Assembly: GCF_000382125.1 (NCBI RefSeq)
Contig: NZ_KB907556.1
Coordinates: 1 to 64,000 of the forward strand
Source: Eudoraea adriatica DSM 19308
GTDB taxonomy: Bacteria > Bacteroidota > Bacteroidia > Flavobacteriales > Flavobacteriaceae
Direction of reading: 5' to 3'
DNA: 64,000 nt
A program made the translations under genes and the position numbers. Positions within the stretch are counted from its first letter, which is position 1; every line of letters starts with the position of its first letter. Below the pieces are notes generated by a model, which did not search any database, was not told the DNA's origin, and worked only from the letters and a program-made list of their open reading frames with translations. Positions 6,066-11,943 of the stretch are shown here, in pieces.

Positions 6066-8786
6066 CTAAGAAATAGCTGCCTGTGCCGCAGCAACCCTGG
6101 CTATTGGCACCCTGAATGGAGAACAGCTTACGTAATTTAATCCAATTCGATTACAGAATTCAACAGAACTTGGTTCGCCACCATGCTCCCCGCAAATACC
6201 TACCTTTAAATCTGATTTCACATTCCTACCCCTTTCCGTACCCATTCTTACTAATTGTCCAACTCCTTCCTGATCGAGAACTTCGAAAGGATCAGAGGTT
6301 AGGATTCCTTCTTTCAAATAGATTTCAAGAAACGAACCGGCATCATCCCTGGAATAGCCGTAAGTCATCTGAGTAAGGTCATTTGTGCCAAAAGAAAAGA
6401 AATCTGCGTGCTCGGCTATTCTGTCGGCCATAAGTGCTGCACGCGGAATTTCAATCATTGTTCCTACAAGGTATTCCACAGTATCTTTTCGCTCCTTAAA
6501 TACTTTTTGAGCCGTAGATCTGATTACCTGTTCCTGTGCTACAAATTCCTTAACTGTACCAACAAGTGGGACCATGATTTCTGGGATTACTGCAATACCC
6601 TTTTCTTTTAAATTTAAAGCAGCCTCTATGATTGCCCTTGTCTGCATTTCGGTAATTTCCGGATAAGTAATACCCAGTCTGCAGCCCCTATGTCCGAGCA
6701 TGGGATTAAATTCATGAAGCTCTGACACTTTATTTTTAACAGCTGCAAGAGATATATGAAGATCTTCCGCCAGTTCTTTTTGGGTTGCCAATTGGTGAGG
6801 AACGAATTCATGTAAAGGCGGATCGAGCAAACGAATGGTTACAGGGAATCCCTGCATAGCCTCAAAAATACCTTCAAAATCTGACCTTTGCATAGGAAGG
6901 AGTTCTTTTAGAGCCACTTTTCTACCTTTTATAGTGTCGGCCAAAATCATTTCCCTCATGGCTCTAATCCTGTCAACTTCAAAAAACATATGCTCAGTCC
7001 TCGTAAGCCCTATACCTTCAGCACCAAAATTACGAGCTGCCGTAGCATCTTTAGGTGTGTCTGCATTCGTACGAACTTTCATTGTGCGATACTTGTCAGA
7101 CAATTCCATAATTTCCGCAAATTCCCCACTCAACTCGGGTTCCATTGTTGGAACTTTACCTTCAATAATATTACCCGTAGTACCATTTAAGGAAATCCAG
7201 TCTCCTTCGTGAAATTCTTTGCCATCAACTCTTAAAACCCTGTTTTTATAATCAATTTTTAGTGCCCCTGCACCAGAAACACAGCATTTACCCATGCCTC
7301 GTGCTACAACCGCTGCGTGGGAAGTCATTCCACCCCTTGCAGTGAGTATACCCCTGGCAATGTTCATGCCTTCCAGATCTTCAGGAGATGTCTCGATCCG
7401 GGTAAGAATGGTATATTTATATTTATCTGCTTCATCGGCGAAAAAAACAATCTGACCGGTAGCTGCGCCGGGAGAAGCAGGTAAGCCCTGCGCAATAATA
7501 TCATCTTTGTTCAGCCCTTTAGGGTCAAATACGGGGTGCAGTAATTCATCCAATTTAATTGGTTCTATGCGCATTAAGGCCTCCTTTTCATCAATCTGAC
7601 CTTCCTTAAGAAGATCTATCGCGATTTTTACCATCGCAGCACCGGTTCTTTTACCATTTCGGGTTTGCAGAATCCACAATTTACCTTCCTGTATGGTAAA
7701 TTCCATATCCTGCATGTCTTTATAGTGTTTTTCCAGTTTTTCCTGATAACCATATAATTCGGAATAAATAGAAGGCATTAGTTCTTCCAGAGAAGGATAG
7801 TCAGCGGCTCTTATAGCTTCTTTAACCTGCGCAAGTTTTGCCCAGCGTTCTGAGCCTAATTTGGTGATTTGCTGCGGTGTTCTTACTCCCGCCACCACAT
7901 CTTCACCCTGTGCATTTATCAAATATTCCCCGTTAAAAACATTTTCTCCGGTTCCTGCATCTCTCGTAAAACAAACCCCGGTTCCTGAATTATTCCCCAT
8001 GTTGCCATAAACCATCGCCTGGACATTAACTGCAGTACCCCAGTCTGCCGGGTATCCGTTCATTTTTCGATAATAAATAGCACGGTCTCCATTCCAGCTA
8101 TCAAATACGGCCATTATTGCGCCCCAAAGCTGATCCCAGGGATCCAACGGAAAATCGTGACCTGTTTGTTTTTTAACTGCATCTTTGAAATCATAAACCA
8201 AATCCTGTAAATCCTGAACAGTAAATTGCGTATCTAATTCTATGTTACGCTTATCTTTAAGGTGCTCCATGATTTCCTCAAAAGGATCTATGTCTTCTTT
8301 GGTCACGGGTTTCATTCCCAAAACAACGCCACCGTACATTTGAATAAACCGACGATAGGAATCCCATGCAAAGCGTTCATTATTTGTTTTTTTTACCAAT
8401 CCGGAAACCACTTCGTCATTAAGTCCAAGATTTAGTACGGTATCCATCATACCAGGCATAGAAACCCTGGCCCCTGAACGAACAGAAATCAACAAAGGAT
8501 TTTCAGGATCACCAAATCTGGTTCCCATAATTTCTTCAATATTTTTAATCGCCTTCTTTACATCTTCCTTTAAATATTTAATAACTTTATTTTTACCCAA
8601 TTCATTATATTCCGTACATACTTCAGTAGTAATAGTGAATCCCGGAGGTACGGGAATTCCAATTGCACTCATTTCGGCAAGATTAGCCCCCTTGCCGCCC
8701 AGTAGGTTTTTCATTTTACTATTTCCATCTGCGGTTTTATTTCCAAACCTGTAGACTCTTGTTTTTACATCGGATACTGTTTCCAT
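6066..8786 (-). CDS. ppdK: Pyruvate, phosphate dikinase
   Basis: This enzyme interconverts pyruvate + ATP + Pi and PEP + AMP + PPi in central carbon metabolism. The protein shows the N-terminal ATP-grasp region (KNLLGGKGANLAEM; SVRSGARVSMPGMMDTVLNL), the phosphohistidine swivel motif GGMTSHAAVVARGMG, and a C-terminal PEP/pyruvate-binding TIM barrel with GTNDLTQM and CGEHGGEP. I chose the ATG at 8786 (METVSD, 906 residues) because the family starts about ten residues before the conserved VYRFGNK block. An upstream in-frame ATG at 8831 would add 15 residues and cannot be excluded. The gene stands alone. The region above it is AT-rich. Confidence 0.95.
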   Translation of the reverse strand: METVSDVKTRVYRFGNKTADGNSKMKNLLGGKGANLAEMSAIGIPVPPGFTITTEVCTEYNELGKNKVIKYLKEDVKKAIKNIEEIMGTRFGDPENPLLISVRSGARVSMPGMMDTVLNLGLNDEVVSGLVKKTNNERFAWDSYRRFIQMYGGVVLGMKPVTKEDIDPFEEIMEHLKDKRNIELDTQFTVQDLQDLVYDFKDAVKKQTGHDFPLDPWDQLWGAIMAVFDSWNGDRAIYYRKMNGYPADWGTAVNVQAMVYGNMGNNSGTGVCFTRDAGTGENVFNGEYLINAQGEDVVAGVRTPQQITKLGSERWAKLAQVKEAIRAADYPSLEELMPSIYSELYGYQEKLEKHYKDMQDMEFTIQEGKLWILQTRNGKRTGAAMVKIAIDLLKEGQIDEKEALMRIEPIKLDELLHPVFDPKGLNKDDIIAQGLPASPGAATGQIVFFADEADKYKYTILTRIETSPEDLEGMNIARGILTARGGMTSHAAVVARGMGKCCVSGAGALKIDYKNRVLRVDGKEFHEGDWISLNGTTGNIIEGKVPTMEPELSGEFAEIMELSDKYRTMKVRTNADTPKDATAARNFGAEGIGLTRTEHMFFEVDRIRAMREMILADTIKGRKVALKELLPMQRSDFEGIFEAMQGFPVTIRLLDPPLHEFVPHQLATQKELAEDLHISLAAVKNKVSELHEFNPMLGHRGCRLGITYPEITEMQTRAIIEAALNLKEKGIAVIPEIMVPLVGTVKEFVAQEQVIRSTAQKVFKERKDTVEYLVGTMIEIPRAALMADRIAEHADFFSFGTNDLTQMTYGYSRDDAGSFLEIYLKEGILTSDPFEVLDQEGVGQLVRMGTERGRNVKSDLKVGICGEHGGEPSSVEFCNRIGLNYVSCSPFRVPIARVAAAQAAIS

Positions 8787-9035
8787 GGGAATATTAAGTT
8801 TAATATAGTTTGACACCGAAATTAGGTCCATTATAGCTTCAATTTTATGACTTATATCATGTATCTGAAAATTGCTTTGGTTATGTAATTAATGTTACAG
8901 TAAAAAGTAAGTATTTCTTAAATGAAGTACTTAGGATTATGAATACTTTAAAAGAAAAAAGGGATTGCTTAATTATTATTATAATAATAAATCAGGATGA
9001 TAAACAATTAAGGTTCTTTGAGATTTTAACTGTAG

Positions 9036-9113
9036 TTACTTCCCGATACAAAAATTTGCAAAAATATTTCCTAAAAGTGCATCGTTGCTTATTTCGCCGT
9101 TAATATCACCAAG
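9036..9113 (-). pseudogene. Remnant of a second mnmE 3' end
   Basis: Read on the minus strand, these 78 bases encode L-GDINGEISNDALLGNIFANFCIGK followed by TAA. This matches the last 25 residues of the intact MnmE encoded at 10522-11943, including its invariant C-terminal FCIGK. At DNA level the copy differs mainly at synonymous third positions, so it was a coding sequence that diverged under selection and is not a recent copy. In-frame similarity stops abruptly: the codon before Leu is a stop (9114-9116). The fragment has the same orientation as the intact gene and lies about 1.49 kb downstream of the intact gene's own tail. Confidence 0.85.
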
Positions 9114-9115
9114 TT

Positions 9116-9533
9116 AGAGATGGCATCATTATGGATGTTCCTTTGGCTATATGGACGCCTATTATGAATTTGCTGAAGCCACGTATTGGAGAGGCCCGTG
9201 ATGTAATTCACATCAATTGTTACCCTTTCTGGAAAGGCTGTGATATGAATTATGCACTCCTGTATATCAAGGACATGTATCAAAGGGCTTTACTTGCGGG
9301 TAATGGAAAAAAGGTGATCATCTTAGAAATGGGCTGGCCCTACCAGGGCCACCAATCTGGAAGGGGCTTAACCCTCCTATGAAAATTGCTTGAAGTACTT
9401 TATGAATATGCAGAAGTGGGTACAGCAAGATTATCTTACAATCTTTTACTTCACTACTTTTGATGAATCCTGGAAAGTAGGAGCCGAGGGACTTGTAGTA
9501 ATCTATTGGGGGTTATGGGACAAGGATGAGTAA
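9116..9533 (+). pseudogene. Frameshifted C-terminal remnant of a GH17-type beta-1,3-glucanase
   Basis: The first reading frame (9116 to about 9370) carries HINCYPFWKG, a spaced run of helix residues and VIILEMGWPYQG, which match the GH17 glucanase blocks ending in the catalytic-Glu motif (E-x-GWP-x-G). A frameshift at about 9365-9375 then moves the reading to frame 3, where 9378-9530 continues with YENCLKYFMNMQKWVQQ, IFYFTTFDESWKVGAEG and YWGLWDKDE before TAA at 9531. These are the expected GH17 C-terminal blocks. The N-terminal half of the enzyme is missing. The first recognisable codon touches the mnmE remnant at 9113. It is a dead gene fragment. The family assignment is by remembered motif order, not by search. 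Confidence 0.7.
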
Positions 9534-9568
9534 TTGAAGTTCTAGATTCATTTACGCTCATAAAAAGA

Positions 9569-9620: not shown

Positions 9621-10394
9621 TTAATCGTCCAAAAGGTCAATTGCAGTTTTAATGCGCTCTCTAATGGTCTCTGCAAGGGCGTTGTTTCCATCCGGATCTT
9701 CAGGGCTTATTTCAATAGTGCCATTTTCATTGCCATCCGCAGCCTGAGAAAGGTCCACTCCGGACACCACATCAAAAATCTGGGAAAGATCAAATTCAAT
9801 CGTAATGCCTTCCGTATTGCTTCTTATAGAAATATCAAATTCAGCCTCTTCAAAATCTACTTCAACTTCATCTTCAAAATCATTCCAGAAAATAAAGGGG
9901 ATATCGTTGATAGTTCCCTGAATAAGTACTGATTTACCAAACAAATCGCTGTTGGGGTCAGTACTCCGATCGAACTTAAACTCCAGTTCTTCAAAGTCAC
10001 CATTTGGGACATCTACGGTAAGGAAGTTAATTTCTCCTGCCAGAAGATCTAGCTCAAACGGACCTTCCAGTTCAAACTCGTCCTCATAATCGTAATATCC
10101 GTCATCATCCCAGATATCATCATCATATTCGGATTCGTTTTCAGATTCAAATTCAGCATCGTCCATTTCCAGTTCAAATTCACGGATATTGACCCTGAAA
10201 TCACTTACAAAGACATCAGTGTTAATGGATTTACTTGTGGAAGCAGTTTTCGCAGAGGAGTTGTTAACGCTAGTTTTAGCGCTTAATTTTAAGGTGCCAT
10301 TGCCATCGGCTTCATCACTGGAACAGCTTATTAAAAAGAGGGAGAAAATAAGCGCAATAGCAAGGTTTCTGGTAATCGATTTTAATATAAACAT
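9621..10394 (-). CDS. Acidic lipoprotein, DUF4382-like
   Basis: This 257-residue protein has a lipoprotein signal ending LISC-SS (Cys near residue 24), a Ser/Thr/Lys-rich linker to about residue 60, then an extremely acidic segment (about 75-115, rich in D, E and Y). A beta-rich domain follows, with VSDFRVNIREFEL and FELDLLAGEINFLTVDVP; blocks of this kind occur in DUF4382-type surface lipoproteins of Bacteroidota. Function unknown; the acidic stretch suggests cation binding but nothing proves it. The gene is downstream of mnmE in the same direction (127-base gap) and has its own terminator. It lies between the two mnmE tails, so it may be part of inserted DNA. Confidence 0.75.
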   Translation of the reverse strand: MFILKSITRNLAIALIFSLFLISCSSDEADGNGTLKLSAKTSVNNSSAKTASTSKSINTDVFVSDFRVNIREFELEMDDAEFESENESEYDDDIWDDDGYYDYEDEFELEGPFELDLLAGEINFLTVDVPNGDFEELEFKFDRSTDPNSDLFGKSVLIQGTINDIPFIFWNDFEDEVEVDFEEAEFDISIRSNTEGITIEFDLSQIFDVVSGVDLSQAADGNENGTIEISPEDPDGNNALAETIRERIKTAIDLLDD

Positions 10395-10521: not shown

Positions 10522-11943
10522 TTACTTCCCAATACAAAAATTCGCAAAGATATTACCCAATAGGTCATCTGAAGTTATCTCTCCTGTAATCTCACCAAAA
10601 TGATAAAGAGCCTGCCGGATATCTATGGCCAGTAGATCACCGGAGAGGCCCTCCTGCATGCCGTGCTGCACTTTTTTAATCTCTTCCAACGACTTTATCA
10701 GGGCATCATAATGCCGGCTATTCGTAATTATAGTCTCATTATTTCTTAAGATTCCTGCATTTACATCATCCAGGAGCTTAGATTTTAACTCTTCAATTCC
10801 CAGACCTGTTTTTGCAGAGAGTAATTGGTATTCTATTTTGTCCTTATCACTAAACAAATCCTTCAATTGGTTCTTTAAGTTCAATAATTTATCAGATGGA
10901 AGAAGGTCTGTTTTGTTAATCAGGGCGATTATAGGTTTAGAGGGATATCTAGTCTTTATCCTTTTTAATTCATCATAAAAGCTCACTTCATGATCCAATA
11001 CATCCAATGCTGATATCAGGAAAAGCACCACCTCTGCTTTTTCCATCTTCTCATAGGTCCTTTCAATACCTATTCGCTCTACTTTATCCATAGTTTCCCG
11101 AATCCCGGCCGTATCTATAAACCGAAATCCAATGCCTCCAATCGTAATCTCATCTTCTATGGTATCACGGGTAGTGCCCGCAATTTCCGATACTATGGCG
11201 CGCTCTTCTTTTAAAAGTGCATTTAAGAGTGTGGATTTCCCTACATTGGGTTCACCGACAATGGCAATGGGTATTCCGCTTTTTATGACATTTCCGAGAG
11301 CAAAAGAATCAATCAGGCTTTTAAGAACGTTTTCAATTCTGTTTAATAAATCCTGAAACTCTTTTCTATCCGCAAATTCAACATCCTCTTCTGCAAAATC
11401 CAACTCCAATTCAATCAAGGAAGCGAAATTTAAAAGTTCTTCCCTCAACTGTTTAATTTCATTGCTAAAACCTCCGCGCATCTGTTGTATGGCAATTTTG
11501 TGAGATGCTTCATTTTCACTGGCAATGAGATCTGCCACTGCCTCGGCCTGACTCAGGTCCATTTTACCATTTAAAAATGCTCGCATTGTAAATTCTCCCG
11601 CATTGGCCATACGGCAGCCATTCCTTATAAACAGCTGAATAATTTGTTGCTGGATGTAGATGGAGCCATGACAGGAAATTTCAACAACATCTTCCCCTGT
11701 ATAACTGTTGGGTCCTTTGAAAACTGATGCCAAAACCTTATCTATTGTAGCATCTCCATCTAAAATATACCCTAAGTGAATGGTATGTGTTTTTACTTTT
11801 TTTAAATCTTTATTGCTTACAGATCTGAATAGTTTTGAAACCAACGGAATAGCCTCTTTTCCGGATAAACGAATAACGGCAATGGCACCTGTGCCCGAGG
11901 GTGTAGCTAATGCAATTATAGTATCCTTTGAAATCATTGACAT
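10522..11943 (-). CDS. mnmE: tRNA uridine-5-carboxymethylaminomethyl modification GTPase MnmE
   Basis: MnmE acts with MnmG to modify U34 in the wobble position of several tRNAs. The N-terminal folate-binding domain starts with DTIIALATPSGTGAIAVIRLSG, the helical domain follows, and an inserted G domain has GEPNVGKST (about residues 231-239 from the chosen start), DTAG and NKTD. The C-terminus ends in FCIGK with the essential cysteine. I chose the ATG at 11943 (MSMISKDT, 473 residues) because the family begins just before DTI; the ATG at 11979 would add 12 unconserved residues. A TATTTTTG box resembling a Bacteroidota -7 element lies just before the chosen start. Its 3' end has a decayed second copy at 9036-9113. 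Confidence 0.96.
   Translation of the reverse strand: MSMISKDTIIALATPSGTGAIAVIRLSGKEAIPLVSKLFRSVSNKDLKKVKTHTIHLGYILDGDATIDKVLASVFKGPNSYTGEDVVEISCHGSIYIQQQIIQLFIRNGCRMANAGEFTMRAFLNGKMDLSQAEAVADLIASENEASHKIAIQQMRGGFSNEIKQLREELLNFASLIELELDFAEEDVEFADRKEFQDLLNRIENVLKSLIDSFALGNVIKSGIPIAIVGEPNVGKSTLLNALLKEERAIVSEIAGTTRDTIEDEITIGGIGFRFIDTAGIRETMDKVERIGIERTYEKMEKAEVVLFLISALDVLDHEVSFYDELKRIKTRYPSKPIIALINKTDLLPSDKLLNLKNQLKDLFSDKDKIEYQLLSAKTGLGIEELKSKLLDDVNAGILRNNETIITNSRHYDALIKSLEEIKKVQHGMQEGLSGDLLAIDIRQALYHFGEITGEITSDDLLGNIFANFCIGK

What the first reader, a model, noticed from the sequence alone, without database searches (positions are those of the whole stretch)
9036..9113. A second, diverged mnmE 3' end, in the same direction as the intact gene
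The minus strand encodes GDINGEISNDALLGNIFANFCIGK and a stop, the same C-terminus as MnmE at 10522-11943, with differences mostly at third codon positions. It has no upstream coding continuation and a stop directly above it. A diverged partial copy is best explained either by an ancient second mnmE that was mostly deleted, or by foreign DNA carrying its own mnmE end. mnmE (thdF/trmE) 3' ends are known targets of integrative elements such as SGI1. In SGI1 the target is only the last few bases, so 78 bases is more than an attachment site needs.
Basis: partly seen in the sequence, partly recalled or inferred. Interest (0 to 1): 0.72.

Follow-up and report, generated by a model that had tools for sequence, protein, structure and literature searches.

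The report
Broken mnmE tail at island hotspot
A marine bacterium carries the broken tail end of a second copy of a tRNA-modification gene, probably left behind when extra genes were spliced in next to it, at a spot where mobile DNA appears to land repeatedly in this bacterial family.

Summary
Window 9036-9112 (-) is a 5'-truncated second mnmE 3' end: 59 of 78 bases equal the intact 3' end, and the next best 78-mer in the window scores 40. It does not look like an attachment site itself. Its upstream edge is a joint with 2-3 nt of microhomology to a decayed, also truncated GH17 glucanase gene, and the relative G003 has the same joint. Its four best matches are from the same genus, but other same-genus ends are no closer than other genera, so origin in another genus is unsupported rather than excluded.

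The surroundings help. In Eudoraea the mnmE-ppdK interval differs in each of the five genomes where its ppdK border was seen. In Flavobacteriaceae the last 18 bp of mnmE look like an island target: 26 of 80 named mnmE loci have a tyrosine recombinase just downstream, these recombinases group together, and further 18-bp copies mark island ends and arrays. This parallels the SGI1 trmE hotspot of Gammaproteobacteria.

Most likely the stub is the resident gene's old 3' end, left after incoming DNA brought an intact mnmE plus cargo; duplication then deletion is the main rival. The stub is an ordinary pseudogene; the hotspot is the interesting part.

The parts
9036..9112 (-). 5'-truncated second mnmE 3' end (stub), codons about 449-473 plus stop
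   Evidence: same stub in G003 C142
9036..9053 (-). 18-bp sequence TTTTGTATCGGGAAGTAA in the stub (the sequence that looks like the attachment site in relatives)
10522..10539 (-). the same 18 bp (one difference) at the end of intact mnmE
9110..9112 (.). joint between mnmE stub and GH17 remnant, 2-3 nt microhomology (CA/CAA)
   Evidence: the same joint in G003
9110..9542 (+). decayed, 5'-truncated GH17 beta-glucanase gene (frameshifts and stops)
   Evidence: the G003 copy hits PF00332, E 2.2e-10; the window fragment itself gave no Pfam hit
9621..10394 (-). 257-aa protein, putative lipoprotein (by eye), no Pfam family; parts of it also between mnmE and the 3' remnant in G009, and its 3' end in G003
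10522..11943 (-). intact mnmE
8900..9035 (.). variable spacer between stub and the conserved ppdK upstream region (conserved from about 8900 on in G001, G003, G006)
6066..8831 (-). ppdK, right border of the variable interval

Best explanation
The stub is the 3' remnant of a second mnmE, cut by illegitimate recombination at codon about 449 and fused to a truncated GH17 gene, inside a variable island region between mnmE and ppdK. Shown: the stub, the microhomology joint, its presence in a related Eudoraea genome, and the variability of the interval. Shown by comparison only: the last 18 bp of mnmE behave like the attachment site of a clade of tyrosine recombinases in Flavobacteriaceae. Inferred: DNA carrying an intact mnmE plus downstream cargo (the lipoprotein gene, part of a glucan-use locus) entered by homologous recombination on the mnmE side and was joined illegitimately inside the resident mnmE, leaving the resident 3' end as the stub. 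The stub then decayed, and the sequence right of its stop changed again, since window and G003 stop matching 3 nt after it.
For: Stub and its significance. Joint CACCAA|GTTAGAG against mnmE CACCAAAATG and intact GH17 TATCAGGTTAAAG in G001 and G002. G003 contig C142 carries lipoprotein 3' end, GH17 remnant and stub at 87% nt, and matching ends 3 nt after the stub's stop. Variable interval: G001 about 10.3 kb with Mannitol_dh, GH3 and MFS_2; G005 about 13.8 kb with GH16; G006 apparently two mnmE copies, the second cut at about codon 166. Displaced 3' ends on the same contig and strand downstream of mnmE also in G009, G014, G056, G114, G301. Hotspot: integrase downstream in 26 of 80 loci, one group, 18-bp repeats.
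Against: The intact mnmE of the window looks like Eudoraea over its whole length, with no visible change of affinity, so replacement by donor DNA is not shown. In G006 the second copy is 92.7% like the first over 381 bp, which also fits a local duplication. No PF00589 match lies between mnmE and the stub in the window, nor in the corresponding intervals of G009, G014, G056, G114 and G301. In G009 the 3' remnant follows the lipoprotein gene without a GH17 remnant, so the joint is not shared by all kin.
Confidence: 0.5

Rival explanations
1. Local duplication: part of mnmE and its surroundings was duplicated within Eudoraea, cargo came between the copies, and a later deletion joined GH17 to the stub.
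For: G006 keeps a longer second copy, 92.7% like its first over 381 bp; the stub's four best matches are from its own genus.
Against: Needs a duplication, an insertion and a deletion instead of one replacement; other genera have different cargo between the copies.
Confidence: 0.25
2. The stub is the right attachment site (attR) of a decayed integrase-driven element at mnmE.
For: It ends with the 18-bp sequence; a relative has what looks like a complete element there: Arenibacter L121, integrase at +174, second site at +8930.
Against: At the far sites of relatives mnmE-likeness is, by eye, confined to little more than the last 18 bp, and the three bases before them are ACT in 10 of 15 sites; the stub is mnmE-like for 77 bp, with AAT there. 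Its upstream edge is a joint inside GH17. Edges of displaced copies differ: codons 420, 432, 445, 448, 457 in G014, G056, G301, G000, G114 and about 166 in G006.
Confidence: 0.1
3. Foreign DNA from another genus carried its own mnmE end.
For: Cargo of glucan-use type could be foreign; several same-genus ends (G009 60, G005 60, G008 59) are no closer to the stub than other genera (49-62 of 78).
Against: The four best matches, 63-67 of 78, are all from the same genus.
Confidence: 0.1

Closest known systems
trmE (mnmE, thdF) 3'-end hotspot of SGI1-related islands, Gammaproteobacteria (PMC9035990, passages seen)
   Same: The last 18 bp of the same gene are the site; islands occur in tandem arrays; the paper calls the 3' end a known hotspot for several island types.
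   Different: Here Flavobacteriaceae; the L121 integrase has PF17293, PF13102 and PF00589; cargo seen includes glucan-use genes. The window's own copy is a 77-bp stub without integrase. Kinship of the integrases was not tested.
Phage or prophage insertion that replaces a gene's 3' end, such as e14 or phage 21 in icd (recalled, not looked up)
   Same: Intact gene plus displaced 3' piece with mostly third-position differences.
   Different: There one fixed crossover; here the edges of displaced copies vary and the joint lies in another gene.
Homology-facilitated illegitimate recombination during transformation (recalled, not looked up)
   Same: One homologous side, one short-microhomology side.
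   Different: Not demonstrated here; inferred from one joint.

Membership tests
mnmE/trmE 3'-end island hotspot | last 18 bp of the gene repeated at the island's far end | tested here: met
   In relatives: 14 further exact copies on the same contig and strand, 1.3-120 kb downstream of mnmE, in 11 of 48 genomes (a set chosen partly for integrases or second sites); reversed control pattern: 7 matches anywhere. 63 of 199 family genomes have 2 or more exact copies anywhere, against 24 control matches in 23 genomes, hand count; the list of places was cut. The window has two copies.
mnmE/trmE 3'-end island hotspot | integrase gene beside the gene end | tested here: met
   26 of 80 named loci, same strand, 72-813 bp after mnmE; no hit at E <= 1e-3 upstream in these 80. 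Not met in the window itself.
Far-end site (attR) of the Flavobacteriaceae mnmE elements | element sequence (commonly ACT) directly before the 18 bp | tested here: not met
   ACT in 10 of 15 sites of relatives; the window stub has mnmE-like sequence for 77 bp, AAT there. Five of the 15 sites lack ACT too, so the criterion is not absolute.
SGI1 family proper | SGI1 backbone genes (mpsA/mpsB, traG), oriT, AcaCD sites, IntSGI1 | not tested
   Only four L121 ORFs were run on Pfam; they hit integrase, HTH_17, VapE-like and Toprim domains.
Replacement of a gene's 3' end by a site-specific element | one fixed crossover point | tested here: inconclusive
   Displaced copies begin at codons 420-457 in five genomes, about 166 in G006, which speaks against one point; later decay could blur it.

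The most novel reading that the evidence does not exclude
mnmE in Flavobacteriaceae is a two-route landing pad: integrase-driven elements use its last 18 bp, while cargo such as laminarin-use loci also moves without any integrase, by RecA recombination in mnmE, each event leaving a variable-length stub of the recipient's own mnmE. Such stubs would be countable scars of recombination-driven island gain.
Probability: 0.3. Interest if true: 0.6.

Novelty: new variant of a known kind. Interest (0 to 1): 0.48.

Why it matters
The stub marks a place where these marine bacteria gain and lose gene blocks, including glucan-degradation genes in G014. The same 18 bp of the same tRNA-modification gene are targeted in Gammaproteobacteria (SGI1) and, it seems, here in Bacteroidota. 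If the integrases prove unrelated, which was not tested, the site was chosen more than once, and why becomes testable.

Tried and rejected
Viral contigs: 45 stretches matched a pattern, none confirmed by tblastn as encoding an MnmE C-terminus. Phages: tblastn of the L121 integrase hit 238 records, all under 60% identity. An integrase inside the intervals of G000, G009, G014, G056, G114, G301: none. Shift of affinity along the intact mnmE: none clear. Homology of the window lipoprotein with a G006 cargo protein: none. The 18-bp excess downstream of mnmE in the 80 loci holds only for close matches: with 0 mismatches 5 downstream on the mnmE strand against 1, 0, 0 in the other three classes; with 1 mismatch 7 against 2, 1, 1; with 2 mismatches 16 against 16, 17, 10, no excess. 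One of the five is L100, the remnant of G009. A recombinase-profile hit in L092 (E 5e-6), not one of the 80 loci, lies upstream of mnmE and looks false by eye. In one search, 9 of 299 genomes had two C-terminus matches; one search shows that G117's second is no 3' end, those of G106 and G287 lie on other contigs at contig ends, G251's on another contig; G000, G014, G056, G114 and G301 remain. G003 C214 mnmE (64%) may be a contaminant of that bin. ppdK lies within reach of mnmE only in Eudoraea and G056 among the loci searched.

Papers: searches returned no paper; some searches returned 4, 2, 1 and 1, and nothing in those listings names an mnmE hotspot in Bacteroidota. Most subscription journals are not held. 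One search gave a listing of SGI1 papers. Passages only were seen of PMC7449626, PMC5704250 and PMC9035990.

Full report
What is there. The window comes from a 3.9-Mb genome (G000). Intact mnmE lies at 10522-11943 (-). At 9036-9112 (-) a second mnmE 3' end keeps codons about 449 to the stop. It agrees with the intact 3' end in 59 of 78 bases; the next best 78-mer of the window has 40. In the whole genome only mnmE itself is a significant match.

The joint. Directly upstream of the stub, on the plus strand, lies a decayed GH17 glucanase gene without its 5' part. The fused sequence is CACCAA|GTTAGAGATGG. Intact mnmE reads CACCAAAATG, and intact GH17 genes of G001 and G002 read TATCAGGTTAAAG, so the two overlap by 2-3 nt. 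In G003 a 3.5-kb contig has the same lipoprotein end, GH17 remnant, joint and stub at 87% nt identity, so the event probably predates their divergence. Matching stops 3 nt after the stub's stop and resumes at window 8900, upstream of ppdK. In G009 a more decayed 3' end (QITSNDL*G*NFANFCIGK*) follows the same lipoprotein gene, without a GH17 remnant.

Whose 3' end. Against 80 named loci and the ends collected from G genomes, the best matches of the stub are the G003 stub (67 of 78), G001 (66) and two ends of G006 (63, 63), all same genus; 78 loci of other genera score 49-62. The same-genus ends of G009 (60), G005 (60), G008 (59) and the window's own intact end (59) are no closer than other genera. 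The ends of G001 and G006 lie at contig edges, so whether they are intact or displaced is not known.

The interval. In the five Eudoraea genomes where its ppdK border was seen (G000, G001, G003, G005, G006), the stretch before ppdK differs each time: G001 about 10.3 kb with Mannitol_dh, GH3 and an MFS sugar transporter; G005 about 13.8 kb with a GH16 and a 30-bp mnmE-like end; G006 apparently two mnmE copies, the second 5'-truncated and 92.7% like the first over 381 bp. Contigs of G001, G002 and G006 break inside mnmE.

The hotspot. Of the 80 named mnmE loci kept by the search, 26 have a tyrosine recombinase ORF starting 72-813 bp after mnmE on the same strand, one of them cut by a contig end; there was no hit at E <= 1e-3 upstream in these loci (the model was built from 19 recombinases of these genomes plus the L121 integrase). 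Twenty-five of them, with one from G016, lie on one side of a branch with support 94/92 (not starred) against the 19 others. The exact 18-bp mnmE end recurs downstream on the same strand in 5 of 80 loci, against one upstream and none on the other strand; with two mismatches allowed there is no excess. In 48 genomes, chosen partly for integrases or second sites, 11 have 14 further exact copies on the mnmE contig and strand, 1.3-120 kb downstream, up to three in one genome; the reversed control pattern had 7 matches anywhere. In 199 family genomes, 63 have two or more copies anywhere by my hand count, against 24 control matches in 23 genomes; G083 has four on one strand within 64 kb, the first being the mnmE end. 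The three bases before the far sites are ACT in 10 of 15; the commonest form, TTACTTYC-TGTATYG-GGAAGTAA, is an imperfect palindrome that would suit a recombinase core (inference). L121 of Arenibacter is a compact case: integrase with PF17293, PF13102 and PF00589, a HTH_17 protein, VapE-like and Toprim proteins, second site at 8.9 kb.

Cargo. G014 has a 42-kb interval with two further 3' ends. It holds SusD, GH16, two GH17, GH30, MFS_2, an ACR-type efflux pump and a Y_Y_Y protein, so glucan-use genes do sit at this place. The GH17 remnant in the window fits that, but its own locus is not known; intact GH17 genes of G001, G002, G003 and G009 lie elsewhere.

Reading. The stub is unlike the far sites seen in relatives: it is mnmE-like for 77 bp, where those keep little more than the last 18, and its edge is a microhomology joint in another gene. 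Displaced ends of other genomes begin at codons 420 to 457, and about 166 in G006. One replacement, homologous on the mnmE side and illegitimate on the other, explains intact gene, cargo, truncated GH17 and stub together; duplication followed by deletion is the main rival. The intact mnmE shows no change of affinity along its length, which neither supports nor excludes a donor from the same genus.

Known or not. The trmE 3' end is a described hotspot with 18-bp sites and tandem arrays in Gammaproteobacteria (PMC9035990, passages). I found no description for Bacteroidota in the held papers. Whether the integrases are related to that of SGI1 was not tested.

Noticed in passing
L109, L166 (Jejuia, Olleya): mnmE-adjacent integrases nearly identical between genera (branches 0.005), which suggests recent transfer.
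   Followed up: no
L101, L104 (Maribacter): Genes that look, by eye, like a type I restriction-modification system follow mnmE, with a second 18-bp site 12.0 and 23.8 kb away.
   Followed up: partly
L050:13001-14647 (G005): A 548-aa protein with a thiol-activated cytolysin domain (PF01289) lies between mnmE and ppdK in an Eudoraea genome.
   Followed up: no
G343:C5: Three further 18-bp sites about 31, 68 and 120 kb downstream of mnmE on its strand, each preceded by TTTTACT: probably an island array.
   Followed up: partly
L208:2601 (G332:C101): A second, diverged mnmE 3' end on another contig of a Winogradskyella genome.
   Followed up: no
L095:12489-12806 (G251:C4): A 5'-truncated mnmE piece on a different contig from the intact gene.
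   Followed up: no
L042, L043, L044 (G006): Contigs break inside mnmE, perhaps because two copies share an identical middle part (inference).
   Followed up: partly
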